Source: Bacteroidota bacterium
GTDB taxonomy: Bacteria; Bacteroidota; Ignavibacteria; Ignavibacteriales; Ignavibacteriaceae
Length of the DNA stretch: 58,895 nt
Assembly (NCBI GenBank): GCA_021831685.1
Contig: JAKBMG010000194.1
Span: 1 to 58,895, forward strand
Direction: 5' to 3'
The notes under the pieces were generated by a model. That model searched no databases, was not told where the DNA came from, and saw nothing but the letters and a program-made list of their open reading frames with translations. Position numbers and translations under genes: made by a program. Within the stretch, counting starts at the first letter, position 1. Every line of letters begins with the position of its first letter. Positions 7,706-17,213 of this stretch are shown here, one piece after another.

Positions 7706-8989
7706 TTGATTAAAGATGTTGGAAAATTTGTAGGTCAAGAAATCTCGCTTAAAGGTTGGCTATATAATAAGAGATCAAGCGGAAAAATTAAATTTTTAAT
7801 ATTAAGAGACGGCTCCGGCTATTTGCAGTGCGTTTACTTCAAAGGTAATGTCTCGGAAGAGACTTTCAATACTGCGGAAAGAATAGGACAAGAATCCGCT
7901 ATTGAGGTTACTGGCAAGGTAAGGGCGGAGGAAAGAGCGCCCGGAGGTTATGAATTAGACGCTACTGGGTTAAAGGTAATTTCTGAAACTCATGATTTCC
8001 CGATTACCCCTAAAGATCATGGCATTGAATTTTTAATGGATAATCGCCATCTGTGGCTGCGTTCCAGCAGGCAAGTAGCTATCTTAAAAATTCGACATAG
8101 AATTTCAAAAGCTATACGTGATTATTTCGACGGACATGGTTTTACCTTGGTCGATACCCCCATTCTTACACCTGCTGCCTGCGAAGGCACTTCTACTCTA
8201 TTTGAAACTGATTATTTTGATTTAGGCAAAGCTTATTTAACTCAATCAGGACAGTTATATGCTGAAGCTAATGCTATGGCATTAGGTAAGGTTTATAATT
8301 TTGGACCGGTTTTTCGTGCTGAAAAAAGTAAAACACGCAGGCATTTAACCGAGTTTTGGATGGTAGAACCCGAAGTAGCTTTTGCCGATTTGAATGACGA
8401 TATGGATTTAGCTGAGGATTTTCTTGAATATGTTGTTCAGTCGGTTTTATCGGATAATTTAGAGGAACTTAAAATTTTAGAAAGAGATATAACTCTTCTT
8501 AAAAATGTTAAGAAACCGTTACCAAGGATTTCATATGATGAGGCTGTCGAAATATTACACAAAAACGGAATTGAATTTGAATGGGGTAATGACCTCGGCG
8601 GAACTGACGAAACGGTGATATCAAACCAATTTGATAGACCTGTTATGGTGCATCGTTATCCTTCTGTCGTTAAAGCCTTCTATATGAAACGGGATCCTGA
8701 AAATGAAAAATTGGCTCTGGCTGTTGATGTCCTCGCTCCTGAAGGTTACGGAGAAATTATCGGCGGTAGCCAAAGGGAAGATAATTTTGATACGCTCTTA
8801 AGTAGAATCGAAGAACATAATCTGCCTCGCGAAGCTTTTGAGTGGTATCTTGATTTAAGGAAATATGGCTCTGTCCCTCATTCAGGTTTTGGACTAGGTC
8901 TTGAAAGAACTGTTAGTTGGATTTGCGGCTTGGATCATGTTAGGGAATCTATTCCTTTCGCAAGAATGATCTACCGGAATACTCCGTAG
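7706..8989 (+). CDS. asnS: Asparaginyl-tRNA synthetase
   Basis: Charges tRNA-Asn with asparagine; cytoplasmic class IIb enzyme, 427 aa, normal for the family. An N-terminal OB-fold ([20 protein letters not shown]) is followed by the class II core: motif 2 at [20 protein letters not shown] and motif 3 at [16 protein letters not shown] near the end. No ATG exists near the start; TTG at 7706 directly precedes the conserved IKDVGKFVG and only six codons separate it from an upstream in-frame stop, so TTG is the likely start. It lies 37 nt before nuoJ, so the Complex I genes may be read through from it. Confidence 0.96.
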
Positions 8990-9026: not shown

Positions 9027-9539
9027 ATGTCATTACAACTAATTTTATTTATTTTGTTCGGCACTATCTCAGCGATTTCTTCTGTGTTGATGATTACCCG
9101 TACAAACGCCTTAATCAGTGCTTTATTCTTAATACTTAATTTTGCGGGTTTGTCGGGTTTATACCTGACATTGAACGCTCAATTTATAGCCGTTACGCAG
9201 GTTATTGTTTATGCCGGCGCCATAATGGTTTTGTTTCTTTTTGTAATTATGTTATTGAAACCGGAGCATGAAAAATATTTTTCCCATCAACCGAAATTAA
9301 AAATCTTTGCATTCTTCATTGCTTTTATTGTCTTCATTCAACTTGTTTTTATGATTTTCGTATCGCATCCTTCACAAGGAAACAATGCAAACGTGGCTGC
9401 AAGCGTTAAAGCGGGAACAATTGAAGAAATAGGTAAACAATTATATACAAATTATGTGCTCCCTTTTGAAGCTGCCGGTTATTTGTTATTAGCAGCAACA
9501 ATCGGAGCTATAGTCTTAGCTAAAAAAAAATTCGAATAA
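9027..9539 (+). CDS. nuoJ: NADH-quinone oxidoreductase subunit J
   Basis: Membrane subunit of respiratory Complex I (ND6-like), 170 aa with five predicted helices. The conserved block [20 protein letters not shown] in helix 3, which includes the pi-bulge region, is present. It forms part of the membrane arm that couples quinone reduction to proton transfer. It starts this partial operon: nuoA-I, which normally precede it, are not here, and asnS sits upstream instead. nuoK follows after 4 nt. Confidence 0.95.
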
Positions 9540-9543
9540 CATT

Positions 9544-9849
9544 ATGAATATCCCAATTGAATATTATTTAATCTTAAGCGGGTTTATGTTCTTAGTTGGT
9601 GTGGCAGGAGTTCTAACCCGCAGAAATGCCATCATTGTCTTTATGTCGATTGAACTGATGTTGAACTCGGCTAATTTATCTTTGGTTACTTTTTCTTCAT
9701 ATATGGGCAATTCTACCGGCCAGCTTTTTGTTTTCTTTGTTATGACAGTGGCTGCCGCGGAAGCAGCAGTGGGACTTGCAATAATTCTCGCAATGTTCCG
9801 TAATAAATTGACTTTAAATATTGATGATATCAATATTCTTAAATGGTAA
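9544..9849 (+). CDS. nuoK: NADH-quinone oxidoreductase subunit K
   Basis: Small membrane subunit of Complex I (ND4L-like), 101 aa, three helices. The two glutamates of the proton path are visible, in [12 protein letters not shown] and [12 protein letters not shown]. The length is standard. It is followed by nuoL after 37 nt. The call is firm. Confidence 0.96.
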
Positions 9850-9886: not shown

Positions 9887-11824
9887 ATGGTTCAGCTAAT
9901 TTACTTAACCACATTGCTTCCGTTATTAGGATTTCTATTCAATGGACTCTTCGGAAGTAAAATTAAAAATGAAAAAATCATTGGAATAATAGGAAGCAGC
10001 ACTATTGGGATTTCCTTCCTAATCGTAGTCGGAGCTTTTTTCCAAACTCTTTCTATGCCGGTAGATCAAAGACAAACTATTGTTAATCTTTTTACATGGA
10101 TTAAAGTCGGAAATCTTGATGTTAATGTTTCATATCAGGTTGATCAACTTTCTTTATTGATGGGTCTGATTGTTACCGGAGTCGGCTTTATTATTCATGT
10201 TTATTCTATTGGCTATATGCATGGCGACAAAGGATTTGGACGATTTTTTGCATATTTAAATTTATTCATCTTTGCAATGATGAATTTGGTACTCGGCAGC
10301 AATTTTCTTCTTCTATTTTTAGGCTGGGAGGGTGTTGGTCTTTGTTCTTATTTGTTGATTGGATTTTGGTATGACAGAAAGTTTGAAAAGAGCACTACAA
10401 GCGATGCCGCTAAAAAAGCATTTATTGTCAATAGAATTGGCGATTTTGGATTCCTACTCGGAATATTTTTAATCTATTTGACTTTCGGAAGTCTTAATTT
10501 TAATGATGTGTTCGCAAGAGCGGCATCATTAAATATCCCCCAATATGTTTTCAATTTTATTGCACTATTTCTTTTCATCGGTGCAATGGGGAAGTCAGCA
10601 CAAATTCCTTTATACATTTGGTTACCGGATGCAATGGCAGGCCCTACTCCAGTTTCTGCATTGATTCATGCCGCTACAATGGTTACTGCCGGAGTTTATA
10701 TGGTTGCGCGATGCTCTATCATTTATGCTTCTGCGCCCGCGATTATGGAATTTGTTGCTATAATAGGAGCTTTAACCGCAATTTTTGCTGCATCAATAGC
10801 ACTTGTTCAGAATGACATTAAAAAAGTGTTAGCTTACTCAACTGTAAGCCAGCTTGGCTACATGTTTTTGGCTTTAGGTGTAGGCGCTTTTTCGGCTGCA
10901 TTATTCCACGTGATGACACATGCATTTTTCAAAGCATTATTATTCCTTGGTGCTGGCTCTGTTATTCATGGTATGCATGATGAGCAGAATATCCAAAACT
11001 ATGGTGGTTTGAAAAAATATATGCCGAAAACTTATGTCACATTTTTAATTGCATCGCTTGCAATTGCGGGCATACCACCGTTATCAGGCTTTTTTAGTAA
11101 AGATGAAATTCTTTGGTCTTCATATGCAGATGGAAATATAATTTACTGGCTTATCGGGGTTGTTACTGCTTTGCTTACCGCTTTTTACATGTTTAGACTA
11201 GTTAGTCTGACTTTTGATGGCAAAGAAAGATTCGGACACGACAAACATCCTCATGAATCACCTGCCGTAATGACCATTCCTTTAATAATTCTTGCAGTCC
11301 TTGCGGCTGTTGGAGGATTTATCGGAATCCCGGAAATATTTTCAGGTGAGCATGGAAATCAATTTGATAATTGGTTAGAGCCTATATTCCAACCTGCGCA
11401 AGCAAAGATAGCAATGTTCGGAGTCCACAGCAGCTTAGAAGAAATTGTTTTAATGGTTGTTACATTAGTTGGCGTTATAGGTTCTATTTACGCTGCAAGA
11501 TATATTTATATAAAGAATATTAAACCGGCAGAAAAACTTTCAAAGAGATTCAACGGGGTTTATAATCTTTTATTAAACAAATATTATGTTGATGAAATTT
11601 ATGATGCCTCTGTTGTAACTCCAATTGTAAAAGGCTCCGAAATAGTTCTTTGGAAATTTGCCGATATAAAAATTATTGATGGTTTAATAAACGGAGTTGC
11701 TAATTTAATTGAAAAAATTTCCGGTTCAATTAGAAAAATACAAACAGGCGTAGCACAATTTTATGCTTTAATAATGATGCTTGGAATTGTAGCCGCTCTT
11801 TTCTGGATAATACTTAGCTTGTAG
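9887..11824 (+). CDS. nuoL: NADH-quinone oxidoreductase subunit L
   Basis: Distal antiporter-like pump subunit of Complex I (ND5-like), 645 aa. Key residues are in place: the glutamate of GWEGVGLCSYLLIGFWY, the lysine of GKSAQIPLYIWLPDAM and the histidines of GPTPVSALIHAATMVTAG. The last part (from about residue 540) carries the charged segment and final helix expected for the long lateral helix that runs along NuoM and NuoN. It ends 3 nt before nuoM. Confidence 0.97.
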   Translation: MVQLIYLTTLLPLLGFLFNGLFGSKIKNEKIIGIIGSSTIGISFLIVVGAFFQTLSMPVDQRQTIVNLFTWIKVGNLDVNVSYQVDQLSLLMGLIVTGVGFIIHVYSIGYMHGDKGFGRFFAYLNLFIFAMMNLVLGSNFLLLFLGWEGVGLCSYLLIGFWYDRKFEKSTTSDAAKKAFIVNRIGDFGFLLGIFLIYLTFGSLNFNDVFARAASLNIPQYVFNFIALFLFIGAMGKSAQIPLYIWLPDAMAGPTPVSALIHAATMVTAGVYMVARCSIIYASAPAIMEFVAIIGALTAIFAASIALVQNDIKKVLAYSTVSQLGYMFLALGVGAFSAALFHVMTHAFFKALLFLGAGSVIHGMHDEQNIQNYGGLKKYMPKTYVTFLIASLAIAGIPPLSGFFSKDEILWSSYADGNIIYWLIGVVTALLTAFYMFRLVSLTFDGKERFGHDKHPHESPAVMTIPLIILAVLAAVGGFIGIPEIFSGEHGNQFDNWLEPIFQPAQAKIAMFGVHSSLEEIVLMVVTLVGVIGSIYAARYIYIKNIKPAEKLSKRFNGVYNLLLNKYYVDEIYDASVVTPIVKGSEIVLWKFADIKIIDGLINGVANLIEKISGSIRKIQTGVAQFYALIMMLGIVAALFWIILSL

Positions 11825-11827
11825 AAT

Positions 11828-13351
11828 ATGATAAACAATTATTTAATTACTTTTTTATTAGCAGTGCCTTTAGTTGGTGCTCTACTTCTACTATTAATTA
11901 AAAAAGATAAAGAAAATCTTGTAAGGTATTTTGGACTATTCGTTTCAACTTTAGCTTTTATTATATCGATAATAATTTATGCCGGATACGACTCTTCAAA
12001 AGGTGGTTTCCAATTAGTAGAAAAGCAGATGTGGATCAGCAATCTACATATAAGCTATAACGTTGGAGTCGACGGTATTTCGTTACTTCTAGTTTTATTG
12101 ACAACTTTTTTAACCCCTCTTACGCTGTTGTCAAGCTGGAAAAGCATAAATAAAAAAGTAAAAGAGTTTACTTTTTTCATGCTGCTGCTTGAACTTGGTA
12201 TGCTTGGCGTTTTCGTTTCTCTTGATCTTTTCCTATTCTATATTTTTTGGGAAGCAATGTTAATCCCAATGTATTTTATAATTGGTATATGGGGTGGGCC
12301 AAGAAGAATTTATGCTTCGATAAAATTTTTCCTATTTACAATGTTTGGCAGCTTATTAATGCTTGTTGCGATAGTTTGGCTTGCTGTATATGCCTCCGGT
12401 ACACTTGGCCACTTTACTACTAACCTTGTCGAACTTTACTCAATTGCACCAACCATTCCTTATGGTATTCAACTATGGATGTTTTTAGCCTTTGCCCTAA
12501 GTTTTGCTATTAAGGTTCCTATTTTTCCATTACATACCTGGCTTCCGGACGCTCACGTAGAAGCTCCTACAGCAGGTAGTGTTATTCTTGCAGGTGTTCT
12601 TCTTAAGATGGGAACTTATGGATTGCTTAGATTTTGTTTACCCCTTTTCCCGCAAGCTGCCATTCACTTTGCGCCTTACATTTCAACGCTTGCTATAATT
12701 GGAATTATCTACGGCGCTCTCGTAGCTATGGTTCAGAAGGATATGAAAAAACTAGTGGCTTATTCGTCAGTCGCACATCTTGGATTTGTTGTACTTGGAA
12801 TTTTTGCAATGACTCAAGAGTCAGTTCAGGGAGCGGTAATTCAGATGGTGAACCATGGTTTATCAACCGGGGCTTTATTCCTTTTAGTGGGCGTTATTTA
12901 CGATAGAATGCATACAAGACTTATTTCCGATTACGGCGGAATTGCTAAGATTGTTCCAGTGTTTGCAACTTTCTTTATGGTCGCTTCCTTATCTTCTATA
13001 GGATTACCGGGGTTAAATGGTTTTGTAGGAGAGTTTTTAATCCTTCTCGGTACATTTAAGTCACCTGTATTAGATAGCTGGTGGTTTGCTGGATTCGCCA
13101 CAAGCGGAGTAATTTTTGCTGCTGTATACTTATTATGGCTCTACCAGCGTGTCTTTTTTGGCGAAGTTAAAAATCCAAAAGTAAATGAGCTGAAAGACAT
13201 GAATAAAAGAGAAATCTTTATTCTATCTGCGATTTTCGTTTTCATTATTTGGATCGGAATTTATCCAAGCACTTTCTTAAAAATTTCTGAAACTTCAACG
13301 AAAAAAGTAATTGAACAAGTTTTTAGTCCGGTCAACACCGGATCGAAATAA
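11828..13351 (+). CDS. nuoM: NADH-quinone oxidoreductase subunit M
   Basis: Antiporter-like proton-pumping subunit of Complex I (ND4-like), 507 aa, about fourteen helices. The conserved glutamate lies in FWEAMLIPMYFIIGIWGG and the lysines in KVPIFPLHTWLPDAHVEAP and LLKMGTYG. It is followed almost at once by a transporter gene that is not part of the usual nuo set. All key residues are intact. Confidence 0.97.
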   Translation: MINNYLITFLLAVPLVGALLLLLIKKDKENLVRYFGLFVSTLAFIISIIIYAGYDSSKGGFQLVEKQMWISNLHISYNVGVDGISLLLVLLTTFLTPLTLLSSWKSINKKVKEFTFFMLLLELGMLGVFVSLDLFLFYIFWEAMLIPMYFIIGIWGGPRRIYASIKFFLFTMFGSLLMLVAIVWLAVYASGTLGHFTTNLVELYSIAPTIPYGIQLWMFLAFALSFAIKVPIFPLHTWLPDAHVEAPTAGSVILAGVLLKMGTYGLLRFCLPLFPQAAIHFAPYISTLAIIGIIYGALVAMVQKDMKKLVAYSSVAHLGFVVLGIFAMTQESVQGAVIQMVNHGLSTGALFLLVGVIYDRMHTRLISDYGGIAKIVPVFATFFMVASLSSIGLPGLNGFVGEFLILLGTFKSPVLDSWWFAGFATSGVIFAAVYLLWLYQRVFFGEVKNPKVNELKDMNKREIFILSAIFVFIIWIGIYPSTFLKISETSTKKVIEQVFSPVNTGSK

Positions 13352-13355
13352 GTTA

Positions 13356-14798
13356 TTGGGAAAAATATACGGAAATAAGATATTCTTAGATATTTGTTTC
13401 GTTTTGTTGTTCTTTCTAAATACTGGATTGTTATCGGCAGAAGTCAAAAGTAACTTAAACGCCGATACTTTAAATGTTGCCTCCGTATCAAATGCACATA
13501 TTATTCAACAGCCCCCGGTTTATTTGATCGTTCCTTTTATTCTGCTGTTATTGGCAATTGCAACCGGACCTCTGTTTTATAAGCATCATTGGGAAAAACA
13601 TTATGCTAAATACTCTATAATTGCCTCGATTGTCGTTGCTGTATATTATGTATTTTTCTTAAATGAGTTTAGCGGATTACTAAAAGTTATAACTGAGTTT
13701 ATCTCTTTTATCGCATTATTAAGTTCGCTGTTCTCTGCATCAAGCGGAATATTGATAAATGTTGATAAAAAATCTACTCCTATTGCTAATACGGTCTTTC
13801 TATTAATTGGCGCTGTCCTTGCAAATTTTATCGGAACTACCGGCGCTTCCGTTCTTTTAATAAGACCGTTTATAAAATTAAATAAAGACAGAATCGCTCC
13901 TTATCATATTATATTTTTTATTTTTATTGTCAGCAATGTAGGCGGGGCATTAACTCCGCTAGGCGATCCTCCGCTATTCCTGGGCTTCCTTAGCGGTGTG
14001 CCTTTCTTCTGGGTTGTTCAGCATATGTGGTATATGTGGTTATTAGCATTAATATTAATCCTAATCCCGTTTTATTTCTTTGATCTTTTTAATAAAAAGA
14101 CAAGCAGTAAAGAATTGTATTCCGGTAAGATTGAGATTAAAGGTCATAGGAATATGATCTATTTGCTGATTATTATTGCTGCTGTTTTTATTGATCCGGC
14201 AGTTTTTCCATGGGTGCCCGATTTATCACCTCTGCCGTTTGGTATAAGAGAAATAATCTTGTTCGCTGTTGTTTATTTTTCTTATAAAAGCTCAGATCAA
14301 AAGATTCTAATAGCTAATGAATTTAATTTCGAACCGATAAAAGAAGTCGCCTTTTTGTTCGTCGGAATTTTTATTACAATGCTTCCCGCGATAGAATTAG
14401 TAGCATTTGAGGCAAAAGCTTTCGGCGATAAATTGAATGCCGATGTTTTTTACTGGGCAACAGGCGTGATTTCGGCTGTGCTTGATAATACGCCTACTTA
14501 TATGAATTTCTTAAGTGCTGCAATGGGGAAATATAATCTTGATATAGCTCTTAAAGCCCATGTTCAGCATTTTGTAAACGTAGATATTATTTATCTGAAA
14601 GCAATTTCAATTAGCGCTGTTCTTTTTGGAGCGCTGACATATATTGGTAACGGCCCTAACTTTATGGTTAAATCAATAAGTGAAAGAGCCGGTATTACAA
14701 TGCCAAGTTTTTTTGCATATATATTTAAGTATTCACTTTTAGTTTTACTTCCGGTCTACACAATTATTTGGCTTTTATTTTTTTACGGTAGAGGTTAA
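13356..14798 (+). CDS. NhaD/ArsB-like (ion transporter superfamily) Na+/H+ antiporter
   Basis: Predicted inner-membrane cation antiporter with about a dozen helices. Two hallmark hairpin regions of the ion transporter superfamily are visible: GTTGASVLLIRP with NVGGALTPLGDPPLFLGF in the first half, and AVLDNTPTYMNF with YIGNGPNFMVKS in the second. It resembles the CitMHS_2/sodium:proton antiporter group. The frame extends up to a TTG at 13311 inside nuoM, but TTG at 13356, 4 nt after the nuoM stop, gives a signal-like N-terminus (480 aa) and fits stop-restart coupling; both starts lack a good ribosome site. Lying inside the Complex I operon, it may balance sodium and proton gradients alongside NADH oxidation. 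Substrate not proven. Confidence 0.8.
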   Translation: MGKIYGNKIFLDICFVLLFFLNTGLLSAEVKSNLNADTLNVASVSNAHIIQQPPVYLIVPFILLLLAIATGPLFYKHHWEKHYAKYSIIASIVVAVYYVFFLNEFSGLLKVITEFISFIALLSSLFSASSGILINVDKKSTPIANTVFLLIGAVLANFIGTTGASVLLIRPFIKLNKDRIAPYHIIFFIFIVSNVGGALTPLGDPPLFLGFLSGVPFFWVVQHMWYMWLLALILILIPFYFFDLFNKKTSSKELYSGKIEIKGHRNMIYLLIIIAAVFIDPAVFPWVPDLSPLPFGIREIILFAVVYFSYKSSDQKILIANEFNFEPIKEVAFLFVGIFITMLPAIELVAFEAKAFGDKLNADVFYWATGVISAVLDNTPTYMNFLSAAMGKYNLDIALKAHVQHFVNVDIIYLKAISISAVLFGALTYIGNGPNFMVKSISERAGITMPSFFAYIFKYSLLVLLPVYTIIWLLFFYGRG

Positions 14799-15167
14799 AT
14801 GTTCAAGACAATTTCGGATACTTTAGAAAATAAATTAAACGGGTTATATTATGGTAACAGAATATTACTGCCATTTTCCTGTTACGTATTGAAAATAATT
14901 ATTGAAGATGATATTTTGATGGATTTTTCCCCTTCGTCCAAATCAATTTATCTTAATGAAACAGATTCATTTACTGAAATATATTTTAAGGATTTTAAAA
15001 ATTTGAAAGATACTATATCAAAGTATGAATCTGTAAAATTGATCGCTGTTGAAAAAAATAAAGATATTTTCCAAATGGAAAATCATATTAAACTGGCTCT
15101 TAGAGTAGGGGATAATCATAAATTAATTATTGAAAAAACTGACGAAGACATTTTATTTTTAGAATAA
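14799..15167 (+). CDS. Uncharacterised 122-aa protein inside the nuo operon
   Basis: No family recognised. It starts at the nucleotide after the antiporter stop and ends 5 nt before nuoN, so it is surely translated with them. It is soluble (no transmembrane helix or signal peptide), mixed alpha/beta by eye, acidic towards the C-terminus (EKTDEDILFLE), with a charged middle part (YFKDFKNLKDTISKYESVK). Base composition matches its neighbours. Its position suggests an accessory or assembly role for the antiporter or Complex I, but that is only context. Confidence 0.75.
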   Translation: MFKTISDTLENKLNGLYYGNRILLPFSCYVLKIIIEDDILMDFSPSSKSIYLNETDSFTEIYFKDFKNLKDTISKYESVKLIAVEKNKDIFQMENHIKLALRVGDNHKLIIEKTDEDILFLE

Positions 15168-15172
15168 CAATT

Positions 15173-16603
15173 ATGCTTAATAACTTTCAAGAATTTTATA
15201 ATATTATACCGATTTTGCTTATCGGTGCAGGATTTTTAATTTCACTTCTGATTGAAATGTACTTCAAAAAAAGTGATGTAATCCTTCCATGGTTTACTAT
15301 CCTGATATTTCTAGCAGCGGGATTTCATGCTTTATACGCGGTCAATTCTGTCTCGGTCATTTTCCAAAATATGCTTGCAACTGGCGGAATAGTAAATATA
15401 TTTTATATCATCTTTACATTCGGCGCCGCTATTGTAGCACTTCTTTCTATTGATTATATAAAAAAATACGGAACTTATTTCGGTGAATATTATATTCTTC
15501 TTCAAACTTCCATCCTTGGTATGATGCTGATGGCAGGCGCCAAGGACCTTTTCATGATCTTTCTTGGATTAGAACTTATGTCTGTTAGCTTTTATTCTTT
15601 AGCCGGTTTGAATAGAAAGCGGCTAAAAGCAAATGAAGCTTCTTTAAAATATTTTTTGCTCGGCGCATTTGCAACCGGATTTATCGTATATGGAATTGCG
15701 TTGATATACGGAACCGTTCATTCAACATCGATTGATATGATCGCATCAAGGTTTTATGAACTATCCTCAGATAAACTTTTTATTGCCGGAATTTTATTAT
15801 TCTTAATCGGATTTTCATTTAAGATTGCTGCGTTTCCATTCCACATGTGGGTCCCGGATGTTTATGAAGGCTCTCCTACAACTATTGCCGGATTATTCTC
15901 AACAGGTGGCAAAGCTGCTGCTTTTAGCGCTATTATTGTTACGCTTGGCGTTTTATTTACAGGGCGAATAGGTAATATTCTTATGCCTTATCTTGCTGTC
16001 ATTTCAGTGCTTTCAATGTTTTACGGAAGCATTGTTGCTATCTCTCAAGACAACATTAAAAGGATGCTTGCTTACTCATCAATCTCGCATGCAGGATATT
16101 TGTTAATTGGTTTGGCTGCAGGAAATTCATTTGGGGTTGCAGGTGTAATCTTTTATTTAGCTTCCTACACTTTTATGAATTTGGGTGCATTCGGAATAGT
16201 TGCTTTAATTGAAGGAAAAGATGAATCCAATTTAACATTGAAGTCTTTTTCCGGTTTAGCTTCAAGATATCCTTTACTTGCGGCTCTTTTTTCAATAATA
16301 ATGTTCTCTCTTGCAGGAATTCCTCCATTTGCAGGATTCTTTGGGAAGTATTATGTTTTTATTGCAGCAATTAAATCTAACTTGACCTGGCTTGCAATCC
16401 TTGGAGTTCTTTCAAGTGTTATTTCAGTTTATTTCTATTTAAGAATTGTCGTGTTGATGTACTTCAAAGATGCTGAAACAGATTTGAAAATTGATGTAAG
16501 TAAAACAGGATTAGCAGCCGTTATCATTTCCGTGCTTTTAGTTATTATTATAGGAATAGCTCCTGGTACTATTATAGATCTAATTGCATTTTTTTTCAAA
16601 TAA
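15173..16603 (+). CDS. nuoN: NADH-quinone oxidoreductase subunit N
   Basis: Third antiporter-like pump subunit of Complex I (ND2-like), 476 aa. The conserved glutamate lies in FLGLELMSVSFYSLAG and the lysine in FKIAAFPFHMWVPDVYEGSP; a second lysine follows in STGGKAAAFSA. Last gene of the partial nuo operon. No strong terminator is visible after it; a partial MITE-like repeat starts 7 nt past the stop. Confidence 0.96.
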   Translation: MLNNFQEFYNIIPILLIGAGFLISLLIEMYFKKSDVILPWFTILIFLAAGFHALYAVNSVSVIFQNMLATGGIVNIFYIIFTFGAAIVALLSIDYIKKYGTYFGEYYILLQTSILGMMLMAGAKDLFMIFLGLELMSVSFYSLAGLNRKRLKANEASLKYFLLGAFATGFIVYGIALIYGTVHSTSIDMIASRFYELSSDKLFIAGILLFLIGFSFKIAAFPFHMWVPDVYEGSPTTIAGLFSTGGKAAAFSAIIVTLGVLFTGRIGNILMPYLAVISVLSMFYGSIVAISQDNIKRMLAYSSISHAGYLLIGLAAGNSFGVAGVIFYLASYTFMNLGAFGIVALIEGKDESNLTLKSFSGLASRYPLLAALFSIIMFSLAGIPPFAGFFGKYYVFIAAIKSNLTWLAILGVLSSVISVYFYLRIVVLMYFKDAETDLKIDVSKTGLAAVIISVLLVIIIGIAPGTIIDLIAFFFK

Positions 16604-17006: not shown

Positions 17007-17010
17007 CTAG

Positions 17011-17084
17011 AGGCGCCGGTCGGATTCGAACCGACGAATAAAGGTTTTGCAGACCTTCGCCTTAGACCACTTGGCTACAGCGCC
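17011..17084 (-). tRNA. tRNA-Cys (GCA)
   Basis: 74-nt cloverleaf on the minus strand: acceptor GGCGCTG pairs with CGGCGCC, anticodon loop CTGCAAA with anticodon GCA, T-arm GGTTCGAATCC. Discriminator base U, as usual for cysteine tRNA. The CCA end is not encoded. Confidence 0.95.
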
Positions 17085-17095
17085 ATATAAAAAAT

Positions 17096-17117
17096 AAAAT
17101 CCACTTAAGTGGATTTT
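17096..17117 (-). terminator. Palindromic terminator between tRNA-Gly and tRNA-Cys
   Basis: A perfect 22-bp palindrome with arms AAAATCCACTT and AAGTGGATTTT. On the minus strand it is followed by ATTTTTTATAT, so it can end the tRNA-Gly transcript before tRNA-Cys. Confidence 0.65.
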
Positions 17118-17140
17118 CAACAGTTAAATATGCGTTTTTG

Positions 17141-17213
<73 letters not shown>

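What the first reader, a model, noticed from the sequence alone, without database searches (positions are those of the whole stretch)
13311..15173. Sodium/proton antiporter and an orphan protein inserted between nuoM and nuoN
The nuo operon is partial (nuoJKLMN, no A-I) and holds an NhaD/ArsB-like antiporter plus a 122-aa protein with no spacing between them. Complex I itself contains antiporter-like subunits, so an extra, unrelated ion antiporter co-translated with it suggests direct conversion between proton and sodium gradients, or a helper pair.
Basis: partly seen in the sequence, partly recalled or inferred. Interest (0 to 1): 0.6.

Follow-up and report, generated by a model that had tools for sequence, protein, structure and literature searches.

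The report
Sodium antiporter pair inside complex I operon
A sodium/proton antiporter and a small uncharacterised protein sit among the genes of respiratory complex I in this bacterium; the arrangement is known from Rhodothermus marinus, but here the small protein belongs to an unnamed family that follows the antiporter, not complex I, through evolution.

Summary
In detail: nuoJ-K-L-M, a Na+/H+ antiporter, a 122-aa protein and nuoN are contiguous on one strand. The antiporter is NhaE-type (Pfam PF16980). The arrangement is not new in kind: it was published for Rhodothermus marinus (2005; seen here only as a citation), with a pterin dehydratase (PCD) as the small protein. In this order an unrelated, unnamed family takes that slot.

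A survey of 164 genomes of the order separates the parts. Where antiporter and nuoN share a contig they are neighbours (64 of 64). Yet presence of the antiporter is independent of nuoN (odds ratio 1.02): 21 genomes show the pair right behind AsnS with no nuo genes, and 44 have nuoN without the pair. The 122-aa protein tracks the antiporter (odds ratio 186). Relatives follow antiporters without nuo neighbours in Neomarinimicrobiota and Chlorobiaceae.

Most likely: a self-standing antiporter plus soluble partner, expressed with complex I, whose proton gradient it spends to export sodium. Direct coupling is not supported, though not excluded. The genome shows no NQR/Rnf, and its one c-subunit lacks the (recalled) sodium motif. 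New variant of a known kind, moderate interest.

The parts
7706..8989 (+). asparagine-tRNA ligase (AsnS), conserved upstream neighbour
   Evidence: ORF; named from its sequence by the analyst; neighbour in relatives
9027..9539 (+). nuoJ
9544..9849 (+). nuoK
9887..11824 (+). nuoL
11828..13351 (+). nuoM
13356..14798 (+). NhaE-type Na+/H+ antiporter (PF16980); longest ORF from 13311, likelier start TTG 13356; first hydrophobic stretch looks like a signal peptide (by eye)
   Evidence: 154-row alignment
14799..15167 (+). 122-aa protein, unnamed family, proposed soluble antiporter partner
15173..16603 (+). nuoN

Best explanation
The two genes form a self-standing module: an NhaE-type Na+/H+ antiporter and a small cytosolic partner of it. 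The module lies inside the nuoJKLMN gene run, so it is probably made together with the distal proton-pumping arm of complex I. Complex I builds a proton gradient; the antiporter lets protons back in and exports Na+, for sodium and pH homeostasis. The 122-aa protein most likely binds, stabilises or regulates the antiporter from the cytosol. It is neither a complex I subunit nor a PCD. Shown: gene order, families, conservation, co-occurrence statistics. Inferred: co-transcription, transport direction, physical pairing, regulation.
For: Antiporter family PF16980, 450 bits. Characterised NhaE proteins of R. marinus and Neisseria meningitidis exchange Na+/H+ according to a review (PMC9408914, passages); a Neisseria gonorrhoeae relative is 39.5% identical over 87% of the query. 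N194, G197, D204, D377, N378, T381, N432 and N435 are kept in 154 of 154 aligned antiporters (152 different). In 164 genomes of the order the 122-aa gene goes with the antiporter (87 with both, 3 gene only, 10 antiporter only, 64 neither; odds ratio 186) and is independent of nuoN (63/27/50/24; odds ratio 1.12). In 21 of the 23 fetched loci with the pair and no nuo, the pair sits directly behind AsnS; the other 2 end at a contig edge upstream. The 122-aa family also follows antiporters that have no nuoJ-N gene nearby in Neomarinimicrobiota and Chlorobiaceae. Own genome: no NqrB/RnfD match; the one c-subunit found has E-G, not E-S/T, in helix 2 (motif meaning recalled), so no sign of a sodium-driven ATP cycle.
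Against: No measurement here: no transcript, no interaction, no transport. Fisher values treat genomes as independent. In 9 of 20 Chlorobiaceae-like loci (chosen partly because the gene lay apart, so not a rate) the 122-aa-family gene is not beside the antiporter. Ten of 97 antiporter genomes show no 122-aa gene, one of them (G309) at a contig edge. In the named scan 39 of 80 loci, Cytophagales-like, have the antiporter with neither 122-aa gene nor PCD, so NhaE does not need this partner everywhere. Pfam's name for PF16980 is 'putative citrate transport'.
Confidence: 0.62

Rival explanations
1. [quoted passage not shown] the 122-aa protein is the adaptor.
For: Gene order nuoM-antiporter-X-nuoN is kept across Ignavibacteria-like and Rhodothermia-like lineages. 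CPA2 and Mrp antiporters sit at the same place in sister families. R. marinus complex I was postulated to catalyse Na+/H+ antiport (Batista 2010, as described in PMC5662883, passage).
Against: Presence of antiporter and nuoN is statistically independent in 164 genomes. 21 genomes keep the pair behind AsnS without nuo, though all 30 antiporter genomes without a nuoN hit still have a NuoH-family match, so some complex-I-like enzyme remains. 44 genomes have nuoN without the pair.
Confidence: 0.12
2. Co-expression only: the pair is a hitch-hiking gene block kept in the operon for dosage, and the 122-aa protein has a job unrelated to the antiporter.
For: In some Chlorobiaceae-like genomes the 122-aa-family gene lies away from the antiporter, beside DUF389 or CLC membrane proteins.
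Against: Co-occurrence with the antiporter in 87 of the 90 genomes of the order that hold it, and adjacency to it in other lineages.
Confidence: 0.13
3. The transporter carries an organic anion such as citrate, as the Pfam name suggests, and is not a Na+/H+ antiporter.
For: Pfam names PF16980 'putative citrate transport'; the superfamily transports charged species, anionic or cationic (PMC9408914, passages).
Against: Characterised NhaE relatives exchange Na+/H+; four plasmid-borne relatives are annotated 'sodium:proton antiporter'.
Confidence: 0.08
4. The 122-aa protein is an assembly factor or subunit of complex I.
For: It lies between antiporter and nuoN in 59 genomes.
Against: Not found in the 44 genomes that have nuoN without the antiporter, and present in 26 without a nuoN hit, of which 2 proved to be contig-edge cases and 1 was not fetched.
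Confidence: 0.05

Closest known systems
Rhodothermus marinus complex I gene cluster with nhaD/nhaE and pcd (Melo et al. 2005; title seen only in the reference list of PMC8063116; gene order nqo13-nhaD-pcd-nqo14 recalled)
   Same: A Na+/H+ antiporter of the same family and a small protein lie between nuoM (nqo13) and nuoN (nqo14). L255, from a genome whose main contig has 3,261,604 bases, the length I recall for R. marinus DSM 4252, shows this order.
   Different: There the small protein is a PCD (PF01329); here it is an unrelated protein of an unnamed family. The window's cluster follows AsnS.
NhaE Na+/H+ antiporter family (TC 2.A.111)
   Same: 39.5% identity to a Neisseria gonorrhoeae relative, 52% to the R. 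marinus-like one; hydrophobic, many-helix protein.
   Different: Followed by the 122-aa protein and lodged in nuo; activity not measured.
Pterin-4a-carbinolamine dehydratase (PCD, PF01329)
   Same: Similar size and the same slot in the Rhodothermia-like clade.
   Different: No sequence match: hhalign probability 0.4% over 4 columns and no Pfam hit. The window's genome has two PCD genes elsewhere.
Mrp antiporters and complex I antiporter-like subunits NuoL/M/N (PF00361)
   Same: Cation/proton exchange theme; Mrp genes follow the antiporter in L060.
   Different: Different Pfam family: the window antiporter has no PF00361 match.

Membership tests
NhaE family (TC 2.A.111) | sequence homology to NhaE proteins | tested here: met
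   N. gonorrhoeae relative 39.5% over 87%; PF16980 at 1.1e-134. That these are NhaE is inferred from the review; the characterised sequences themselves were not compared by name.
NhaE family (TC 2.A.111) | Na+/H+ exchange, Na+ resistance in salt-sensitive E. coli | not testable with these tools
   reported for R. marinus and N. meningitidis NhaE in PMC9408914 passages; not for this protein
NhaE family (TC 2.A.111) | IT-superfamily fold | not tested
   no structure of the antiporter was predicted; both jobs went to the small protein
NhaD family | sequence match to NhaD proteins rather than NhaE | tested here: inconclusive
   best model is PF16980; PF03600 (CitMHS) scores 47.6 bits; no NhaD sequence was compared directly
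R. marinus-type nuoM-nhaE-X-nuoN cluster | antiporter and a small gene between nuoM and nuoN, same strand, short gaps | tested here: met
R. marinus-type nuoM-nhaE-X-nuoN cluster | X is PCD | tested here: not met
PCD (PF01329) | Pfam model match | tested here: not met
   no hit at E up to 1; not among the families matched by 37 family members at E up to 0.1
complex I accessory subunit | occurs where complex I of this type occurs | tested here: not met
   122-aa gene versus nuoN: odds ratio 1.12, p 0.74
complex I accessory subunit | co-purifies with the complex | not testable with these tools
   needs an experiment
YHS domain (PF04945) | Pfam match | tested here: inconclusive
   weak in 7 of 37 members, best E 1e-4; none in the window protein at E up to 1

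The most novel reading that the evidence does not exclude
The 122-130-aa family is a new, dedicated cytosolic regulatory subunit of NhaE antiporters (in some Chlorobiaceae perhaps also used by CLC and DUF389 membrane proteins). In lineages with the full cluster, antiporter and partner dock on the distal arm of complex I, so that redox-driven proton pumping and sodium export run in one assembly.
Probability: 0.1. Interest if true: 0.75.

Novelty: new variant of a known kind. Interest (0 to 1): 0.42.

Why it matters
Whether and how bacteria couple complex I to sodium transport has been debated, with R. marinus as a main case (PMC5662883, passage). The survey separates two ideas that gene order alone confounds: the antiporter is often built into the nuo operon, yet it is not tied to that complex in evolution. 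It also delivers an unnamed protein family whose likely partner is known, and natural variants (pair without nuo, nuo without pair, PCD in place of the 122-aa protein) for direct tests.

Tried and rejected
Considered and set aside: (1) the 122-aa protein as a diverged PCD: hhalign probability 0.4%, 4 columns. (2) A known fold for it: AlphaFold models are confident (pLDDT 87.1, pTM 0.81; Neomarinimicrobiota version 84.2, 0.79), but Foldseek gave no PDB match at E up to 0.001 (best 0.34 and 0.21), and the VIA second look gave only middling Z (best 5.8, rmsd 2.8, 81 aligned; 5.3, rmsd 3.0, 86 aligned), with immunoglobulin-like and other beta proteins among the rows; this does not show that the fold is new. 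(3) Relatives with solved structures: none for the family profile, chance hits only for the single sequence; for the antiporter two chance hits. (4) Promoter and terminator scan: 47 promoter-like sites against 38.7 (sd 5.7) and 9 terminator-like against 6.8 (sd 2.8) in shuffles, uninformative. (5) Plasmid records gave no match to the Neomarinimicrobiota version. (6) A sodium-cycle reading: no NQR/Rnf match, no Na+ signature in the c-subunit (motif recalled).

Literature: Melo 2005, Melo 2006 and Batista 2010 are not held; seen only as citations or as described by others. Searches listed no paper whose title or abstract start concerns the 122-aa family or antiporters in nuo operons (17 listed 15 of 42 papers, 102 listed 12 of 22, the others all they found); this covers open-access text only. 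Passages were read in PMC3543383, PMC9408914, PMC8063116, PMC5662883, PMC12361115 (104: 3 mentions of 'antiporter', none on this arrangement in the two passages shown) and PMC13343851 (105: NhaE in Desulfatiglandales, no gene order given in the passages shown).

Rows dropped before counts: antiporter matches of the other clade (325 bits or less, or below the listing; nuo-type rows are 380 bits or more), the second copy G315:C182 (388 bits, 50% identity), a second 122-aa match in G414 with two stops (E 0.004), and a 39%-identical nuoN match in G313. In one search the PCD query was missing for L039-L127, so rows shown there as MN may be MpN; two rows of that alignment are duplicates. Trees: FastTree and quick IQ-TREE on 61 rows; many inner branches have support under 95.
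Full report
What is there. The window is a whole contig (C212, 58,895 bases) of a 4.5-Mb genome in 221 contigs, 99.8% complete. On the + strand lie AsnS, nuoJ, nuoK, nuoL, nuoM, an antiporter, a 122-aa protein and nuoN, with gaps of 37 nt or less. The antiporter is PF16980 at 450 bits; the small protein has no Pfam hit. The likely antiporter start is TTG 13356, matched in position in three close relatives. dN/dS is 0.07-0.10 for the antiporter and 0.05-0.11 for the small protein, against 0.03-0.08 where it could be computed for nuoM and nuoN, so both genes are under purifying selection. The missing nuo genes are partly elsewhere: nuoABCD and, by eye, nuoEF on C71; G, H and I were not sought. 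A second, 11-subunit nuo cluster without EFG lies on C141 (named by eye). I call the organism Ignavibacteria-like because named relatives with the same cluster are Ignavibacteriales, Melioribacter and Ignavibacteriaceae (L134, L135, L194); its nearest named records are titled only 'Bacteroidetes bacterium' (L128-L131).

What the antiporter is. A review (PMC9408914, passages) describes the NhaE family, founded on the R. marinus antiporter, which gives E. coli Na+ resistance, with a second characterised member in Neisseria meningitidis. The window protein is 39.5% identical to a N. gonorrhoeae relative over 87% of the query, and 52% to the antiporter of L255, a genome whose main contig length (3,261,604) equals the length I recall for R. 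marinus DSM 4252. Among 154 aligned antiporters N194, G197, D204, D377, N378, T381, N432 and N435 are invariant. In the phylum, 179 of 296 genomes match PF16980, 163 of them over its cut-off.

Known precedent. Melo et al. 2005 reported a nhaD antiporter and a pcd homologue among the R. marinus complex I genes; I saw the title in a reference list only (PMC8063116), and the exact gene order is recalled. It fits 25 of 27 loci examined of a Rhodothermia-like clade (placed by the tree or by sharing a family code with rows in it): nuoM-antiporter-PCD-nuoN in L069, L070, L072, L074, L075, L076, in ten loci of the named scan and in L255-L263. The two exceptions are L078 (antiporter-PCD without nuo) and L073 (neither). 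Pfam was run on two of these PCDs (L069, L141) and confirmed both.

Survey of the order (164 genomes searched of up to 250 asked for, analysed). Genomes with the nuo-type antiporter: 97. With the 122-aa gene: 90. With nuoN: 113. Antiporter, 122-aa gene and nuoN contiguous: 59. nuoN only: 44. Antiporter then 122-aa gene without a nuoN hit: 26. Antiporter next to nuoN without the 122-aa gene: 5. Antiporter alone: 4. Six further genomes have hits split over contigs or incomplete: G296, G306, G309, G350, G391, G396. Of 67 genomes with both antiporter and nuoN, 64 have them adjacent in this order; in the other three the hits are on different contigs. Of the 26, two (G345, G397) carry nuo on the same contig, cut by the contig end, and G414 was not fetched. 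Of the remaining 23 loci, 21 show AsnS-antiporter-orf122 with no nuo gene, and in 2 (L096, L110) the contig ends before AsnS. The four antiporter-only genomes show AsnS-antiporter. Five of the 44 nuoN-only genomes were fetched, and all five show AsnS-nuoJKLMN with nuoM and nuoN adjacent. Any NhaE relative at E up to 1e-50 is found in 143 of 164 genomes; by eye from that call, 39 of the 44 nuoN-only genomes hold one, of another clade (41-47% identity where listed). Fisher tests: 122-aa gene against antiporter, odds ratio 186, p 9e-31; 122-aa gene against nuoN, 1.12, p 0.74; antiporter against nuoN, 1.02, p 1.0. They are not corrected for ancestry. On a 61-row antiporter tree the linkage to nuo needs five changes, of which well-supported branches force two. 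All 30 antiporter genomes without a nuoN hit have a NuoH-family match over the cut-off (in G369 only one of 175 bits); in the two examined it belongs to a C141-type cluster (L124, L125).

The rest of the class. Ten class-level loci outside the order were fetched (L059-L068). Eight have nuoM directly before the antiporter; L062 and L065 do not. None shows the 122-aa gene by BLAST, and seven of the ten were also tested by profile, without a hit.

The small protein's family. It is wider than the order. In class-level genomes 53 of 391 match, including five of another family code (f54), whose loci all have it between antiporter and nuoN, one cut inside the antiporter (L250-L254). In the phylum 66 of 345 match, all of those outside the window's order in family f24, which I take for Chlorobiaceae because its antiporters group with named Chlorobiaceae. 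In the named scan (244 relatives found, best 80 kept), 21 loci, titled Neomarinimicrobiota/Marinimicrobia or Chlorobiaceae and its genera except one with no such title, carry a 128-133-aa homologue directly behind an antiporter with no nuoJ-N gene detected; 18 of these were called by BLAST and 3 (L139, L145, L168) by reading. Eight loci are of the window's type, one is AsnS-antiporter, ten have PCD, one is cut, and 39 (Cytophagales-like, mostly Cyclobacteriaceae) have neither, two of these (L152, L184) ending within 200 nt of the antiporter. The 37-member alignment keeps one proline and one phenylalanine in all rows. Pfam and NCBIfam show only weak matches and the PDB none. AlphaFold gives a confident beta-rich domain without a clear PDB match. 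Its highest 19-residue hydropathy is borderline (1.53) and the model is mostly strands, so I take it for soluble.

Where the family leaves the antiporter. Of 20 f24 loci fetched, many chosen because the gene lay apart, 11 have the gene beside the antiporter and 9 do not. Five of the nine (L228-L232) have a DUF389-type membrane protein next door (Pfam run on L228 and L230; the others by sequence likeness), a sixth (L234) has a piece that looks like it, one (L236) follows a CLC channel with a CBS domain, and two (L235, L238) have neither. In L237 a CLC-like gene precedes antiporter and partner. The recurring neighbours are membrane proteins, which is why I read the family as a soluble partner of transporters. 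This part is inference.

A hint for coupling. In sister families of the class the antiporter behind nuoM is followed by other cation/proton antiporters: a CPA2 exchanger before nuoN in L059, and Mrp genes E, F, G, A-like, B, C, D, D, D in L060; L067 starts the same way. So cation/proton antiporters of three families gather at this spot. This supports a functional need to make sodium/proton exchange together with complex I, but does not require physical attachment.

Mechanism. Best-supported: complex I pumps protons; NhaE spends the gradient to export sodium; the 122-aa protein assists NhaE. Steps shown: gene order, families, conservation, co-occurrence. Steps inferred: co-transcription, direction, pairing, regulation. 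The genome offers no NQR/Rnf match and no sodium motif in the one c-subunit found (motif recalled), so the sodium gradient is probably not the main energy currency. PMC5662883 (passage) says that R. marinus complex I itself was postulated to do Na+/H+ antiport, so the docking idea remains open.

Verdict. Observation confirmed; interpretation partly supported; new variant of a known arrangement, with an unnamed partner family as the new element.

Noticed in passing
L060 7033-17608 and L067: nuoJKLM, NhaE and a set of Mrp antiporter genes are contiguous in L060 (L067 starts the same way): an Mrp system joined to a nuo cluster, with no true nuoN recognised in the stretch.
   Followed up: partly
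L059 284-6282: A CPA2-family exchanger (PF00999) sits between NhaE and nuoN, so two different antiporters share one nuo cluster.
   Followed up: partly
L228-L232, L234, L236, L237: Relatives of the 122-aa protein stand beside DUF389 or CLC-type membrane proteins in Chlorobiaceae-like genomes.
   Followed up: partly
G000 contig C141 3178-17800 (L086): A second, 11-subunit nuo cluster without EFG, preceded by genes that look like multihaem cytochromes (CXXCH repeats, by eye), possibly a different electron input.
   Followed up: no
L126 658-3797: Two tandem antiporter copies before the 122-aa gene and nuoN.
   Followed up: no
L039, L050: The other NhaE clade is followed by what looks like an inorganic pyrophosphatase gene (by eye).
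   Followed up: no
window 17010-17213: tRNA-Cys and tRNA-Gly on the - strand just downstream of nuoN.
   Followed up: no
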